The notes under the pieces were generated by a model. The model was not told the origin of the DNA and searched no databases. It worked only from the letters and a program-made list of their open reading frames with translations. A DNA stretch of 64,000 nucleotides from NCBI RefSeq assembly GCF_000092645.1, contig NC_014165.1:1-64000 (forward strand). The letters run 5' to 3'. The position numbers and the translations under genes were made by a program. Position 1 is the first letter of the stretch; each line of letters begins with the position of its first letter. Shown here piece by piece: positions 8,933 through 38,645 of the stretch. This DNA comes from Thermobispora bispora DSM 43833. Lineage in GTDB: Bacteria > Actinomycetota > Actinomycetes > Streptosporangiales > Streptosporangiaceae.

Positions 8933-11437
<2,505 letters not shown>

Positions 11438-11528: not shown

Positions 11529-12353
11529 ATGAGCGAGACCGGCAAACCGCGGACGCCCGGCGCACCCGTGGAGGGCGCGGCACGCCCGGCGTCGTCGTCG
11601 AAGCAGGATGCGGTGAGCGAGGCCAAGGGCGTCACCGGCGCCACGTCGGCCTCCGCCAAGGCGGCACCTGCCGATAAGGCCACCGAGACGGTCCGCGTCC
11701 GTCCGCCGGCGGCGGACCGGAAGTGGCAGGGAGAGCCGGCCAGGAACGGCGGCGAGCCTGCGGACGGTGCCAGCGGCACCGAGTCGACCGCGGTCTACCC
11801 GAGGCCCTCGTTCGACCGGCCGGTGGCCTCGGGCGGTTCGCCCACGCCCGGCGCACCTCCCGCGGGGCCCGCACCGGCCAGGTCCGGGGCGGACGGCGCG
11901 GCGCAGCAGGGTCAGCGCCCGGCCGCCTTCGGCGCCGCCGAGAGCCAGGCGGCGGGCCAGAAGAGCAACCGCACCCCGCGGCGGGCGCACCTCGTGGTGC
12001 GCCGGATCGAGCCGTGGTCGGCGATGAAGTTCAGCTTCATCATCTCCCTCGTCGCCTTCGTGGTGCTGTTCGTCGCGGTGGCCGTGCTGTACGGCGTCCT
12101 GTCGTCGCTCGGCGTCTTCTCGACGATCATCGACACCGTGACCCAGCTCACCGGCAGCGGGGAGAACGGCCAGCAGCCCGTGTTCGACATCGCGAGCTGG
12201 TTCGACCCGGTGCGGATCCTCGGCTACACCGCACTGGTCGGCGCGGTGAACGTCGTGCTCATCACCGCCCTCTCGACGATCGGTGCCGTGATCTACAACC
12301 TGTCGGCCGAACTGGTCGGCGGTATCGAGGTCACGCTCACCGAGTCCGAGTGA
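11529..12353 (+). CDS. DUF3566 membrane protein downstream of gyrA
   Basis: This 274-residue protein is counterpart to the conserved membrane protein found after gyrA in many actinobacteria. The first ~165 residues are disordered and rich in Ala, Pro, Gly and charged residues. Two membrane segments follow: FSFIISLVAFVVLFVAVAVL near 175 and the segment around YTALVGAVNVVLITAL near 237. The end (YNLSAELVGGIEVTLTE) is the conserved DUF3566 tail. I prefer the ATG at 11529. An in-frame ATG at 11487 would add 14 residues, and neither has a strong ribosome-binding site. The molecular role is not known; the location suggests a link to the gyrase operon or cell-cycle genes. Confidence 0.85.
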   Translation: MSETGKPRTPGAPVEGAARPASSSKQDAVSEAKGVTGATSASAKAAPADKATETVRVRPPAADRKWQGEPARNGGEPADGASGTESTAVYPRPSFDRPVASGGSPTPGAPPAGPAPARSGADGAAQQGQRPAAFGAAESQAAGQKSNRTPRRAHLVVRRIEPWSAMKFSFIISLVAFVVLFVAVAVLYGVLSSLGVFSTIIDTVTQLTGSGENGQQPVFDIASWFDPVRILGYTALVGAVNVVLITALSTIGAVIYNLSAELVGGIEVTLTESE

Positions 12354-12503
12354 CCCGCGTACGGCTGCCGCGGGAGCGCGGTGGCCGTACGAAACGGGCC
12401 GGGAGAGCACGATCAGGTGTCCGGATGCGGTACGCTTTACCCAGTGCGAGGACCGATTCGCCACCGGCGACGGAATACGGTAACGTTCCTACCGCACGGA
12501 CAG

Positions 12504-12577
12504 GGGGCTATAGCTCAGTCGGTTAGAGCGCTTCCCTGATAAGGAAGAGGTCTCTGGTTCAAGTCCAGATAGCCCCA
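12504..12577 (+). tRNA. tRNA-Ile (anticodon GAT)
   Basis: A complete cloverleaf is visible. Acceptor GGGGCTA pairs with TAGCCCC, with discriminator A. The D-arm contains AGCTCAGTCGGTTAGAGC. The anticodon loop CTGATAA sits between CTTCC and GGAAG, and the T-arm contains GGTTCAAGTCC. No CCA is encoded. Its place after gyrA and DUF3566 is conserved in actinobacteria. Confidence 0.98.
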
Positions 12578-12585
12578 CTTCGAGG

Positions 12586-12615
12586 AACGCCCCGGACGGC
12601 ACAACCCGGGGCGTT
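12586..12615 (+). terminator. Terminator hairpin after tRNA-Ile
   Basis: A perfect 10-bp inverted repeat, AACGCCCCGG … CCGGGGCGTT, with a 10-base loop starts nine bases after the tRNA and ends in a short TT. It is a good intrinsic terminator for the tRNA transcript. Confidence 0.8.
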
Positions 12616-12942
12616 TCGCTGTTCCGGGCACCTGCGTTCGGGTACGGCAGGCGGGCTCGGGCACTCCCCTGGTGGATCCGCCGCCCTGCCGGGCGCTCCC
12701 GCCGATCGATGGCCGTCGGCCGTCACGTCCCCGGATGCGTCCCACGTATCCACAGCCGAGGCGCTGCCGGTGGACGGGCGACCGTGCGGGGCCACGGCGT
12801 TCTTCGCCGGATCCGGCCGGGGCAGCCGGCCCAACCCCGCTCCGGCCGTTCTCGCGGGCTTTCCGCGGCACGCGGGCGCTGCGGCAGGCCTGCGGTACGC
12901 GCGGGGACCCCACCAAGAACCTCGGCCGTTTGGCGGCTCCGG
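12616..12942. other. Non-coding stretch between tRNA-Ile terminator and the YnfA-like gene
   Basis: About 330 bases of GC-rich DNA with no open frame resembling a protein and no clear signals. Confidence 0.5.
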
Positions 12943-36116: not shown

Positions 36117-36611
36117 TCACGAGCGGGGAAGTGAGGCACGCATCCTGTGGATGGCCCGTAAGACGTCATCACGGTTCTTGGCCGACGTCACCCATGCGGG
36201 CAGCCGGGCCAGCATGCTCAGCGAACCCGGTACGGCACGCCGCTCCCTCAGCCGTGCCGCGACCCAGGACTCCAGCAGATCCAGGTGCTGGACGTTGTAG
36301 GCCCACAGGACATGGCCGCGGCAGCCGGCTTGCAGCCAGAGCGGAAGCCGGAAGAAGGGGTCGACCGGGCCACCGAACAGGAACTCGGAGAAGAACTCGT
36401 CCTTGCCGAACCCGCATGCCCGGCAGCGGAGCCGCCGGCGGCCGCTCAAGGCGCTGCTGAGCTCCGGTACGCGATCGGCGGCATCGAGATCCCGTAGCAC
36501 GAGCGCGCACCCACCGCAGGCGGGGCAACGCACCAGGACGGTGTGGGTCAGCTGCCAGACGTGGATCCGCGGATCCCGGAACCGGCCGCCGGCCTCGCCG
36601 CCGACACTCAC
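36117..36611 (-). CDS. Zinc-ribbon protein of unknown function
   Basis: The product of about 164 residues carries a two-knuckle zinc ribbon: VRCPACGGCALVLRD near residue 27, and RRLRCRACGFGKDEFF near 60. The second half is Trp/Leu-rich (DPFFRLPLWLQAGCRGHVLW near 85, LDLLESWVAARLRERR near 110) and ends in a basic helix. TFIIB-type zinc ribbons of this kind occur in uncharacterised actinomycete proteins. The start is uncertain; GTG 36611 gives the first domain-like residues, while ATG 36785 would add a non-conserved 58-residue leader. It lies downstream of, and co-directional with, the VirD4-like gene. Confidence 0.65.
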   Translation of the reverse strand: MSVGGEAGGRFRDPRIHVWQLTHTVLVRCPACGGCALVLRDLDAADRVPELSSALSGRRRLRCRACGFGKDEFFSEFLFGGPVDPFFRLPLWLQAGCRGHVLWAYNVQHLDLLESWVAARLRERRAVPGSLSMLARLPAWVTSAKNRDDVLRAIHRMRASLPRS

Positions 36612-36797
36612 TCGATCATTATCCGGTGCTCGTGACCGGGAGAGCGGTCTTCCGCATGGATGCGTGCGATCATGCGGCGACGCGACCTGCCGGCATCTCG
36701 TGCGCGGCAGATCGTGACGGCTGATCATCCGGCTTTTCCTAGTCGGGCACCGCCTGGCGCCGGACGAGCACCCGAGCGACGGCATGCGCGCCTCAGG

Positions 36798-38645
36798 TCA
36801 GGACGGCCACGGCCGGTCCGAGACGTTGTCCAGCAAAGCGATCCCCGGATTGCAGTCGCCGGCGATGATCCGGCGACCTGCCGGGCCTGTCTCGACCAGG
36901 ATGAACGCCGTGGTGGGCAGGGACTGCAATGTCGTGGGTTCCACCATGTATTCGTAGACCCGTGACATGGTCCGCCCGACGGTCTCCGAGTCTGCGGTCG
37001 CCCACTTGCGGGTTTCCTGCCAGCTCCGTGACCATGATTCGCTGGTCGAATGGTGACCGCCGCCGCTCTTCGTCGTGCCGTCGGGTCCTCTGCTGGTCGA
37101 CCAGCTGCTGCCCCAGCTCTCCCCTTCTTGATGCTGTACGCCCCACGACTCCGCGCCACCGGTGACGAGCGTGCGACCGACCTGCTCGGTGATCTGGCTG
37201 AGCGTGAACCTGAACCCACGCCCGATGTAGTCCGCGGCCGTCGTGGCTTCTTGGTGGTTGCGCAGGCACATCAGGAACGTGGCGCTGTCCGTCCCGCCCA
37301 TGAGCTGCTGCAGCTCACCCCGGAGATGCTCGATCAGCAGCACTAACCGGACATCGGCCCTGCGGGCGTACTTGGTGATCGCCTCCAAGGTCTGGAGGCC
37401 GAGATGGTCGGCGCCGGCGACCACGACGACTCCCTGGGGCTCGCGGTTGGACAGCGCGCGCACGAGCTCCTGTGCCAGCACGTGATCGGTGAACTCCTTG
37501 CGGCGTCGGTTGTTGTCGAAGGTGGCCACTATGGTCAGTCCGCGCAGGTTCCACGGCGAGTCGTACCCGGTGCCCGGCTCCGTGCCGTCTGACGCCATCC
37601 GCCGCGCCCCGCCGTCCACCGCGAGGAGATGCAGGGTGTTGCTCAAGAAGCGAAGTTCTTTCAGGGTGAATTCCGATTGGCCGAGGGTGCCGGCATAGGC
37701 CGACAGCCGTTCGACCTCCGCGCTGTGCAGCGGACCGCCGCCGGAAGGCTCGTAGGCCCCCTGCAGTACGGCCAGGCCGGCGGCGATGCGGGTGAAGGAA
37801 AGGGGACCGGACAGTCGCTGGAGCACCGCGTTGAGCAGGTCGGCATGGAGTGCCCGGGCGTCCGCGTGGTTCGTGGACTGCCGCAGGCCGTGCACCGCCT
37901 CGGCGAGCAGTTCGGCGCACTCGTCCGTGCTCGCGGTGGCGAGCAGGTCAATGCGGTGCAGTTCGTTCGGTAGCGCGATCCGGTTGACGGGGATTCCCCG
38001 TACCGCGGTGAGAGCCGCCAATCCTCCGCCGACGTCGTGCTCGGTGAAATCGAGCAGGACCAAGTCCTGACGGGCGCCGAGCAAGGAACCGCCTGCCGTG
38101 GCCAGCAGGCTCGCCCAGCCTTCAGGGGTTCCGCCGAACACGTCGACCCTGGAGGGTGCCGAAACGAGCCGGATGGGATACCAAGAAACGGCGGTCTCCC
38201 ATCGCCGCCGCTCGGCCTCGTCATACGCCGCAACGGCCTGTTTCCAGTTCTGTACGGCAACCTGGTACTGCGCGAACGCTGCATCACGCACTTTCCGGTA
38301 TTCGTGCTGCAGCTGGTCGATCCGCTGCTTGTTCAGGTTCGGCCGAATGAACCACTGGAAGCCGAACCATGCGGCGACAGGGAGCAGGATGAACATCAGC
38401 GGCGGAAGGGTCGCGCACGCGAGCATGGTGATCATGTAGCGGATCCGGTCCTTCCGCTTCGCCTCCGCCTCCTGTTGCGCCTGCAACAGGTCGACCAGCT
38501 CCTCGGGCAACGGAGGCTCTTGCCACACCGGCTCTTGGTCAAGGTAAGGGTTTGCCCGGATCGGTTCCGGCTCGCGGAACTCGAACCCCCATCGCTCATC
38601 AGGCACGAACAGCCGGTCCGCCAGCTGCATGTTCAACTCAGCCAC
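36798..38645 (-). CDS. Membrane-anchored VirD4/HerA-like protein with degenerate P-loop
   Basis: The 615-residue protein has an acidic N-terminus, a coiled segment, a double membrane segment (MITMLACATLPPLMFILLPV onward, residues about 70–98) and another coil to about 155. A RecA/FtsK-like core follows. Its Walker A position reads GGTPEGWASLL (about 170–180) and lacks the catalytic Lys–Ser/Thr. LVLLDFTEHD (about 197) and VVVVAGADHL (about 405) occupy Walker B-like strands. LVLLIEHLRGELQQL then GGTDSATFLMCLRN resemble the C-terminal motor region of VirD4/HerA coupling proteins. A Ser/Trp-rich tail (about 500–545) precedes a final strand TTAFILVETG. GTG at 38645 follows GGGAG. No conjugation genes are nearby. 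Function unknown. Confidence 0.7.
   Translation of the reverse strand: MAELNMQLADRLFVPDERWGFEFREPEPIRANPYLDQEPVWQEPPLPEELVDLLQAQQEAEAKRKDRIRYMITMLACATLPPLMFILLPVAAWFGFQWFIRPNLNKQRIDQLQHEYRKVRDAAFAQYQVAVQNWKQAVAAYDEAERRRWETAVSWYPIRLVSAPSRVDVFGGTPEGWASLLATAGGSLLGARQDLVLLDFTEHDVGGGLAALTAVRGIPVNRIALPNELHRIDLLATASTDECAELLAEAVHGLRQSTNHADARALHADLLNAVLQRLSGPLSFTRIAAGLAVLQGAYEPSGGGPLHSAEVERLSAYAGTLGQSEFTLKELRFLSNTLHLLAVDGGARRMASDGTEPGTGYDSPWNLRGLTIVATFDNNRRRKEFTDHVLAQELVRALSNREPQGVVVVAGADHLGLQTLEAITKYARRADVRLVLLIEHLRGELQQLMGGTDSATFLMCLRNHQEATTAADYIGRGFRFTLSQITEQVGRTLVTGGAESWGVQHQEGESWGSSWSTSRGPDGTTKSGGGHHSTSESWSRSWQETRKWATADSETVGRTMSRVYEYMVEPTTLQSLPTTAFILVETGPAGRRIIAGDCNPGIALLDNVSDRPWPS

What the first reader, a model, noticed from the sequence alone, without database searches (positions are those of the whole stretch)
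36798..38645. VirD4/HerA-like membrane protein that appears to have lost its Walker A lysine
The protein has the layout of a coupling ATPase: N-terminal double membrane segment, RecA-like core and C-terminal motor motifs. However, the P-loop position reads GGTPEGWASLL, without the Lys–Ser/Thr needed for ATP binding. It also carries a striking Ser/Trp-rich stretch before its last strand. No relaxase, conjugation or secretion genes surround it. It could be a non-hydrolysing scaffold derived from a DNA translocase and a candidate for an undescribed membrane complex, perhaps with the neighbouring zinc-ribbon protein.
Basis: partly seen in the sequence, partly recalled or inferred. Interest (0 to 1): 0.7.

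Follow-up and report, generated by a model that had tools for sequence, protein, structure and literature searches.

The report
Dead-motor membrane partner of toxin exporters
The gene encodes a membrane protein shaped like the pumping motors of bacterial secretion machines but with its fuel-binding site replaced by a conserved tryptophan, and because related genes in other soil bacteria sit beside a working motor and variable toxin genes, it may be the lone remaining part of an uncharacterised toxin-export machine.

Summary
The 615-aa protein of Thermobispora bispora is a conserved gene (dN/dS 0.275 against its nearest relative). A predicted structure (pLDDT 79) has the VirB4/VirD4/HerA fold. 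The Walker A position reads G-GTPE-G-W-A; tryptophan replaces the lysine in 146 of 149 family members, none of which has GxxxxGK[S/T] anywhere, and glycine sits at the Walker B catalytic-acid position in 147. So it is an old, family-wide pseudo-ATPase.

The zinc-ribbon partner is not supported. The recurrent partner is an intact VirB4/HerA-like ATPase (GATGSGKS), adjacent in 60 of 80 named loci. In the toxin-linked clade that holds this gene, the ATPase gene is usually followed by a protein with a disordered N-terminus; 9 of 19 scanned end in toxin-type domains of six families, and immunity-type genes such as Barstar follow some.

Best reading: the membrane receptor or scaffold of a reduced T4SS-like toxin exporter. 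Export is inferred, not shown. The window copy is an orphan: no partner ATPase or similar toxin gene was found in the window; the genome's one close partner ATPase lies at 518 kb beside a paralogue. One 2025 paper seems to glimpse the arrangement; I found no description of the family.

The parts
36798..38645 (-). membrane pseudo-ATPase gene, 615 aa (member of the toxin-linked clade of the family)
   Evidence: ORF; conserved family; dN/dS 0.275 against its nearest relative; tree
38346..38438 (-). residues 70-100, hydrophobic membrane segment (probable hairpin)
   Evidence: hydropathy: such a segment lies upstream of the loop in 123 of 149 members
38193..38405 (-). residues 81-151, long helix from the membrane segment to the core
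   Evidence: predicted structure, helix 80-150 in the numbering of the modelled sequence
38112..38135 (-). residues 171-178 GGTPEGWA, degenerate Walker A (G-x4-G-W)
   Evidence: W177 in 146 of 149 members, G176 in 147 of 149; strand-loop-helix in the model
38037..38063 (-). residues 195-203 LVLLDFTEH, core strand with conserved D199
   Evidence: D in 147 of 149
37413..37430 (-). residues 406-411 VVVVAG, position of Walker B (acidic pair replaced by A-G)
   Evidence: G411 in 147 of 149; position 410 is A, C, L, V or I; register inferred from strand order
36978..37163 (-). residues 495-556, Ser/Trp-rich disordered insert before the last strands
   Evidence: composition; pLDDT under 50; length varies between relatives
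36831..36968 (-). residues 560-605, C-terminal strands, VEPTTLQSLP...GDCNPGI
   Evidence: a profile match to the C-terminus of actinobacterial VirD4 falls here, but it is not significant (probability 0.7%)

Best explanation
The gene encodes a membrane-anchored pseudo-ATPase of the VirD4/VirB4/HerA fold. Shown: the fold (by prediction) and the family-wide replacement of the Walker A lysine by tryptophan, with glycine at the Walker B catalytic-acid position. Inferred: it cannot hydrolyse ATP, forms a ring or receptor at the membrane, and hands substrate to, or docks, a separate ATP-consuming VirB4/HerA-like motor encoded beside most relatives. In the clade to which this gene belongs the cargo is probably a polymorphic toxin with a long disordered N-terminal part, neutralised at home by an immunity protein. 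The pair would then act as a reduced type IV-like toxin exporter made of one live motor and one dead membrane receptor. In T. bispora no such motor or toxin gene was found in the window, so this copy is an orphan that either borrows the one close motor of the genome, encoded at about 518 kb, or has a role of its own.
For: Fold: VIA Z 22.8 for DndH-C (316 aligned, 3.6 A), 22.4 VirB4 (320, 3.5 A), 21.2 and 20.0 TrwB (337, 7.3 A; 331, 4.4 A), 18.3 HerA (295, 3.8 A); Foldseek best E 1.8e-6. Motif loss in 149 sequences. Partner: directly downstream on the same strand in 60 of 80 named loci; 5 elsewhere in the locus, 10 with under 1.5 kb of downstream DNA, 5 without it (these loci are mostly of the MurT-linked clade). 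In 48 loci of the other clades, 39 have it within the stretch held. Co-occurrence in 100 genomes: 45 both, 16 this family only, 2 motor only, 37 neither. Motor: P-loop GATGSGKS; model of a MurT-clade motor matches VirB4 at Z 29.4 (341, 3.6 A). Toxins: 9 of 19 proteins encoded directly after the motor have a toxin-type domain, two of the nine below Pfam's cut-off, against 0 of 10 upstream genes. Immunity-type genes: Barstar after the barnase-like toxin (E 5.5e-19), MORN_2 after a deaminase, HD_4 two genes after RelA_SpoT. Disorder-prone N-termini in 19 of 20 against 18 of 107 other genes. Tree: the window lies with two Streptomyces toxin operons and L178 (SH-aLRT 99).
Against: No motor or similar toxin gene in the window; none beside the nearest relative (L032) or in five loci of the f19 genus g79, and G080 of that genus has no motor match at E 1e-3 or 1e-60. 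Profile comparisons with the motor and with actinobacterial VirD4 were not significant (probabilities 0.4% and 0.7%), so kinship rests on fold; Foldseek TM-scores are modest (0.14-0.40 on the query length). The motif register comes from strand order and conservation, not from a residue-level superposition. Ten of 19 proteins after the motor have no recognised domain; the 19 are not independent (L183 and L209-L212 are one lineage). Export is not shown; no channel, pilus or known export signal was identified. In a Frankia-like group the third gene is an AbiEi_4-type protein (L173). The motor family occurs with toxin and immunity genes on an E. coli plasmid where no relative of this protein was matched, so the pseudo-ATPase is not always needed.
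Confidence: 0.55

Rival explanations
1. An intracellular HerA-type anti-phage or abortive system: the HerA/VirB4-like ATPase and the pseudo-ATPase sense invading DNA and release or activate a resident toxin; nothing is exported.
For: HerA ATPases paired with effectors are known defence systems and are among the structural hits of the motor (8xav, 8zit, 8j4u). PADLOC models mad8 and HerA match the motor. The S. antimycoticus locus lies near an ABC three-component system, the S. clavuligerus locus near caspase and CHAT genes.
Against: Immunity-type genes after some of the toxins (Barstar, MORN_2, HD_4) and an RHS-repeat toxin are hallmarks of exported polymorphic toxins (recalled). The partner has a membrane segment. 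Some upstream genes are cell-wall related (YkuD in L176, weakly in L202; peptidoglycan-binding in L178).
Confidence: 0.25
2. A chromosomal housekeeping complex: the pseudo-ATPase is a scaffold in envelope biogenesis or DNA handling (as its MurT-GatD-linked paralogue may be), and the toxin link is a later use in other lineages.
For: The paralogue group sits beside MurT-GatD-like genes in the Streptosporangiales loci compared, with no toxin gene between motor and MurT (by position and sequence); some genomes have the pseudo-ATPase without a motor match.
Against: The window's gene lies in the toxin-linked clade, not the MurT-linked one (quick tree, midpoint root).
Confidence: 0.15
3. A still-working ATPase with an unconventional nucleotide site (Trp stacking on the base, catalysis supplied in trans by the live partner in a mixed ring).
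For: The loop glycines, the Trp and D199 are nearly invariant, so the site is under selection.
Against: Both the Walker A lysine and the Walker B acid are replaced through the family.
Confidence: 0.05

Closest known systems
VirD4/TrwB type IV coupling proteins
   Same: Membrane segment plus hexameric-motor fold; TrwB is among the best structural matches; receptor role proposed by analogy.
   Different: No match to T4CP models in Pfam; Walker A and B positions rewritten; the membrane segment lies between a first strand (about residue 20) and the core, whereas in VirD4 it comes first (recalled); no PF02534 protein in the genome.
VirB4/TrwK (for the partner ATPase)
   Same: Intact P-loop; VirB4 core at Z 29.4; TrwK aligned over 538-568 residues including the N-terminal region.
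   Different: The TrwK alignments have rmsd 13-14 A; DndH-C scores as high (Z 30.4); best Pfam matches are HerA_C/DUF87; model confidence is moderate (pLDDT 62) and the model is of the MurT-clade motor L062.
Type VII EccC/EssC ATPases
   Same: Live and degenerate FtsK-HerA modules work in one exporter that also carries antibacterial toxins (passages of PMC9436818; note to Table 1 of PMC3482391).
   Different: There the modules are fused in one chain with WXG/LXG substrates; here they are two proteins and the presumed substrates have disordered N-termini.
[quoted passage not shown] 2012, PMC3482391)
   Same: Constant genes, variable C-terminal toxin domains, immunity-type genes downstream of some.
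   Different: In the passages I saw, which show part of the trafficking table, no route made of a HerA/VirB4 motor plus a dead VirD4-like membrane protein appears.
Streptomyces albireticuli exported alarmone synthetase locus (PMC12691689)
   Same: A passage reports such a toxin co-occurring with genes named TrwB, TrwK and TrwI and suggests a T4SS; probably the same arrangement as in S. antimycoticus here, though I did not see that locus.
   Different: One sentence on one locus; no dead motor, family or other toxins in the passages seen.

Membership tests
FtsK-HerA/VirD4 ATPase superfamily | RecA-type motor fold | tested here: met
   VIA Z up to 22.8 and Foldseek E 1.8e-6 on a model of pLDDT 78.8
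FtsK-HerA/VirD4 ATPase superfamily | Walker A GxxxxGK[S/T] | tested here: not met
   W instead of K in 146 of 149 (2 R, 1 gap); the motif is nowhere in 149 sequences
FtsK-HerA/VirD4 ATPase superfamily | Walker B hhhhD[E/D] | tested here: not met
   hydrophobic/A/C then G in 147 of 149; register inferred from strand order and from a non-significant profile alignment
VirD4 coupling protein (T4CP) | match to a T4CP model in Pfam (PF02534, PF10412, PF12696) | tested here: not met
   only one sub-threshold hit to another family at E up to 1; profile comparison with 11 actinobacterial VirD4 not significant
VirD4 coupling protein (T4CP) | encoded with relaxase or T4SS channel genes | tested here: inconclusive
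   no PF02534 match in the genome; relaxase and channel genes were not searched for
VirB4-like ATPase (partner gene) | motor fold with intact Walker A | tested here: met
   GATGSGKS; VirB4 Z 29.4 for the L062 motor
Polymorphic toxin system (relatives' loci) | variable C-terminal toxin domains | tested here: met
   9 of 19 proteins after the motor, six domain families; two of the nine below Pfam's cut-off
Polymorphic toxin system (relatives' loci) | cognate immunity gene downstream | tested here: met
   Barstar, MORN_2 and HD_4 in three loci; not identified in most others
Polymorphic toxin system (relatives' loci) | toxin is exported | not testable with these tools
   needs experiment
Polymorphic toxin system (window locus) | motor, toxin and immunity genes present | tested here: inconclusive
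   no motor-profile match and no similarity to 21 toxin-position proteins in the window; an unrelated toxin gene cannot be excluded, as only one neighbour was domain-scanned

The most novel reading that the evidence does not exclude
A previously undescribed, compact toxin-export machine of Actinobacteria: an ATP-consuming VirB4/HerA-like motor plus a membrane VirD4-like protein whose ATP site has been permanently exchanged for an invariant tryptophan, feeding polymorphic toxins with disordered leaders across the membrane. T. bispora retains an orphan membrane part.
Probability: 0.4. Interest if true: 0.85.

Novelty: new variant of a known kind. Interest (0 to 1): 0.7.

Why it matters
If right, it adds a delivery route to the ways in which Gram-positive bacteria send toxins, with only two constant proteins. 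It is also a clean natural case of a secretion receptor that works without ATP hydrolysis, separate from its motor, which bears on what coupling proteins do besides burning ATP. The family is annotated 'hypothetical' in the plasmid records seen, none of the four members scanned reached a Pfam cut-off, and 59 of 61 sampled genomes of the window's family carry it.

Tried and rejected
Zinc-ribbon partner (window 36117-36785): rejected; 7 of 100 genomes, and not linked in G012.

Recent single-gene loss of the lysine: rejected by the family-wide survey.

Rosetta-stone fusion: NF033849 (serine-rich protein) matched the motor and, weakly, the Ser-rich stretch of this family. Reading the E. coli, Photobacterium and Anabaena homologues suggests that the model describes the motor family with its own Ser-rich insert, so I did not use it as evidence of fusion.

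Conserved neighbours of the orphan copies: none seen between the window, L032 and the g79 loci apart from the gene itself and a few unrelated positions (its output was cut at 9000 characters).

Sequence-profile proof of kinship to VirD4 or to the partner: not obtained. The family profile against PDB sequences gave only two weak DnaB helicase hits (E 0.19, 0.37). Phages: no match. Class-wide profile search: two errors, replaced by a single-sequence search of 148 genomes, 21 with a match.

That f19 and f20 are Frankiaceae and Streptomycetaceae is recalled from genome sizes, not read from a call. The gene after the motor was not scanned in some further loci (for example L035, L191, L200, L205, L217, L036). 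The tree is a quick one with a midpoint root; it flagged long branches (L178, L187 among them) and left out duplicates kept under other ids, among them the window's sister L032/L003 and L034, L036, L037. Fisher tests ignore kinship; the upstream control has only 10 genes. The named-locus scan kept the best 80 of 204.

Full report
What is there. The ORF at 36798-38645 (minus strand, GTG start, 615 aa) is real. The genome is one contig of 4,189,976 bp, the length given for Thermobispora bispora R51T in the abstract of PMC3035289. The closest relative (G012, L032) is 72.6% identical with dN/dS 0.275, about the same as for the paralogue pair (0.289), so the gene is maintained. Pfam and NCBIfam give no match above cut-off.

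The P-loop. In an alignment of 36 members, G170, G171, G175 and W176 (one lower than protein numbering) are invariant. In 149 members (window included, exact duplicates of the last 420 residues removed) the position of the lysine in G-x4-G-[K] is W in 146, R in 2 and a gap in 1; GxxxxGK[S/T] occurs in 0 of 149. At the Walker B strand the catalytic-acid position is G in 147 of 149 and the residue before it A, C, L, V or I. D199, in another core strand, is kept in 147 of 149. Both positions were thus rewritten and then conserved: a pseudo-ATPase family, not a decayed gene. The register rests on strand order in the model and on conservation; I had no residue-level superposition.

The fold. AlphaFold2 on 56 sequences gave pLDDT 78.8, pTM 0.73. 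VIA-align: DndH-C Z 22.8 (316 aligned, 3.6 A), VirB4 22.4 (320, 3.5 A), TrwB 21.2 (337, 7.3 A) and 20.0 (331, 4.4 A), the L. pneumophila T4CC 19.2 (304, 4.4 A), HerA 18.3 (295, 3.8 A). Foldseek's best are HerA and TrwB at E about 2e-6, with modest TM-scores. The degenerate loop lies between a strand (165-169 in the modelled sequence) and a helix (173-189), as a P-loop should. The membrane segment (residues 70-100) and a long helix lie between an N-terminal strand near residue 20 and the core, unlike VirD4, whose membrane part comes first (recalled). The Ser/Trp stretch is disordered. Profile comparison found no significant sequence similarity to the partner motor (probability 0.4%) or to 11 actinobacterial VirD4 (0.7%).

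Distribution. 61 of 100 genomes have a match: 59 of 61 in the window's own family (not G018, G019), plus G061 and G080. In a class-wide sample 21 of 148 have one; 25 of 35 in the family of G080; 6 of 200 in the family of G173, with a Streptomyces query. Plasmid records: 20, of which 18 Streptomyces (16 of them S. clavuligerus), 1 Nocardia, 1 Nonomuraea. Phage records: none. The genome-contig scan found 204 relatives, of which the best 80 were kept.

The partner. Neighbourhood comparison showed a protein of about 1000 aa beside many relatives, with an intact GATGSGKSQTVR P-loop and Pfam HerA_C/DUF87. Of 80 named loci, mostly of the MurT-linked clade, 60 have it directly downstream on the same strand, 5 elsewhere in the locus, 10 lack 1.5 kb of downstream sequence, and 5 have none. 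In 100 genomes: 45 both, 16 this family only, 2 motor only, 37 neither (different thresholds, kinship not corrected). A model of one motor (L062, MurT-linked clade; pLDDT 62) matches DndH-C at Z 30.4 (337, 3.2 A), VirB4 at 29.4 (341, 3.6 A), HerA at 22.5 (339, 5.4 A), and TrwK/VirB4 over 538-568 residues but at 13-14 A rmsd. In T. bispora the one close match is at 517.8-520.9 kb, beside the paralogue at 516 kb; a second, distant one (27% over about 340 residues, E 3.9e-9) is at 3.24 Mb.

Toxins. On S. clavuligerus pSCL4, an S. antimycoticus plasmid and a Nocardia plasmid the order is pseudo-ATPase, ATP-binding protein, then a variable protein. Ten had none above threshold; L187 has a lipase hint at E 0.11, not counted. 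The 19 are not independent. Immunity-type genes follow in some: Barstar after the barnase-like toxin (E 5.5e-19), MORN_2 after a deaminase, HD_4 two genes after RelA_SpoT. Other small downstream genes scanned gave DUF6406 (L181), ankyrin repeats (L187) or nothing (L172, L180, L182). Ten upstream genes as a control had no toxin-type domain; one was an esterase-like hydrolase. The N-terminal parts are rich in disorder-promoting residues in 19 of 20, against 18 of 107 other genes in the same loci. In a group of f19 genomes the order is motor, pseudo-ATPase, then a protein of about 307 aa; the one scanned (L173) is of AbiEi_4 type. Of 48 loci outside the MurT-linked clade, 39 have the motor in the stretch held; the 9 without it are L032, L037, L052, five g79 loci and the short L215. 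Outside Actinobacteria the motor family also sits beside toxin-immunity genes: LHH nuclease plus SUKH on E. coli plasmid pTW10590_133, a record with no match to the window protein.

Where the window's copy belongs. A quick tree of 66 members puts it with the S. clavuligerus and S. antimycoticus operon members and L178 (SH-aLRT 99), apart from the 20 MurT-linked rows (100). The window's 526 frames of 60 aa or more hold no match to the motor profile and no similarity to 21 toxin-position proteins. Its sister's stretch (L032) has no motor, and no conserved neighbour was seen with the g79 loci. The zinc-ribbon protein is not linked.

Mechanism. Shown: fold (predicted), dead motifs, linkage of relatives with a live motor and with variable toxins plus some immunity-type genes. 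Inferred: that the two ATPase-fold proteins form one complex, that the dead one is the membrane receptor or conduit, and that toxins are exported. EssC/EccC of type VII systems, where live and degenerate FtsK-HerA domains share one chain, is the nearest precedent (passages of PMC9436818; note to Table 1 of PMC3482391).

Literature. Ten searches of the held open-licence library (listings only, except for the papers named here) gave no description of this family that I could recognise. One sentence of PMC12691689 (passages seen) reports an alarmone-synthetase toxin of S. albireticuli beside genes named TrwB, TrwK and TrwI and suggests a type IV system; this is probably the same arrangement. The passages seen of PMC12857230, PMC12419801 and PMC7159879 do not mention it.

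Verdict. New variant of a known kind, with a sizeable chance of being a new export route.

Noticed in passing
L183:12801-14426 and 12316-12660: A protein with a C-terminal barnase-like domain is followed by a Barstar gene and, further on, a NADAR-domain gene, in a pseudo-ATPase/motor locus.
   Followed up: partly
L202:1203-4195: YwqJ-deaminase toxin followed by a MORN_2 protein and an Endonuclease V gene, which could repair deaminated DNA.
   Followed up: no
L220:5429-9686 (E. coli plasmid pTW10590_133): HerA-like ATPase with a Ser-rich insert, LHH nuclease and SUKH-type gene; near-identical DNA in 1 of 5426 E. coli genomes, that plasmid itself.
   Followed up: partly
L039:8759-15922 and related loci: The paralogous pseudo-ATPase/motor pair sits beside MurT- and GatD-like genes (named from sequence, recalled) in the Streptosporangiales loci compared; its role is unknown.
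   Followed up: partly
L052:9623-14941: An Egibacteraceae bacterium carries two convergent members of the family and no motor match in the 21 kb held.
   Followed up: no
L176, L178, L202 upstream genes: Genes upstream of the pair include YkuD L,D-transpeptidase-like (weak in L202) and peptidoglycan-binding proteins, which would suit passage through the cell wall.
   Followed up: no
G021, G023, G030, G044 (L048-L051): These genomes have the pseudo-ATPase beside MurT-GatD-like genes but no match to the motor ATPase.
   Followed up: partly
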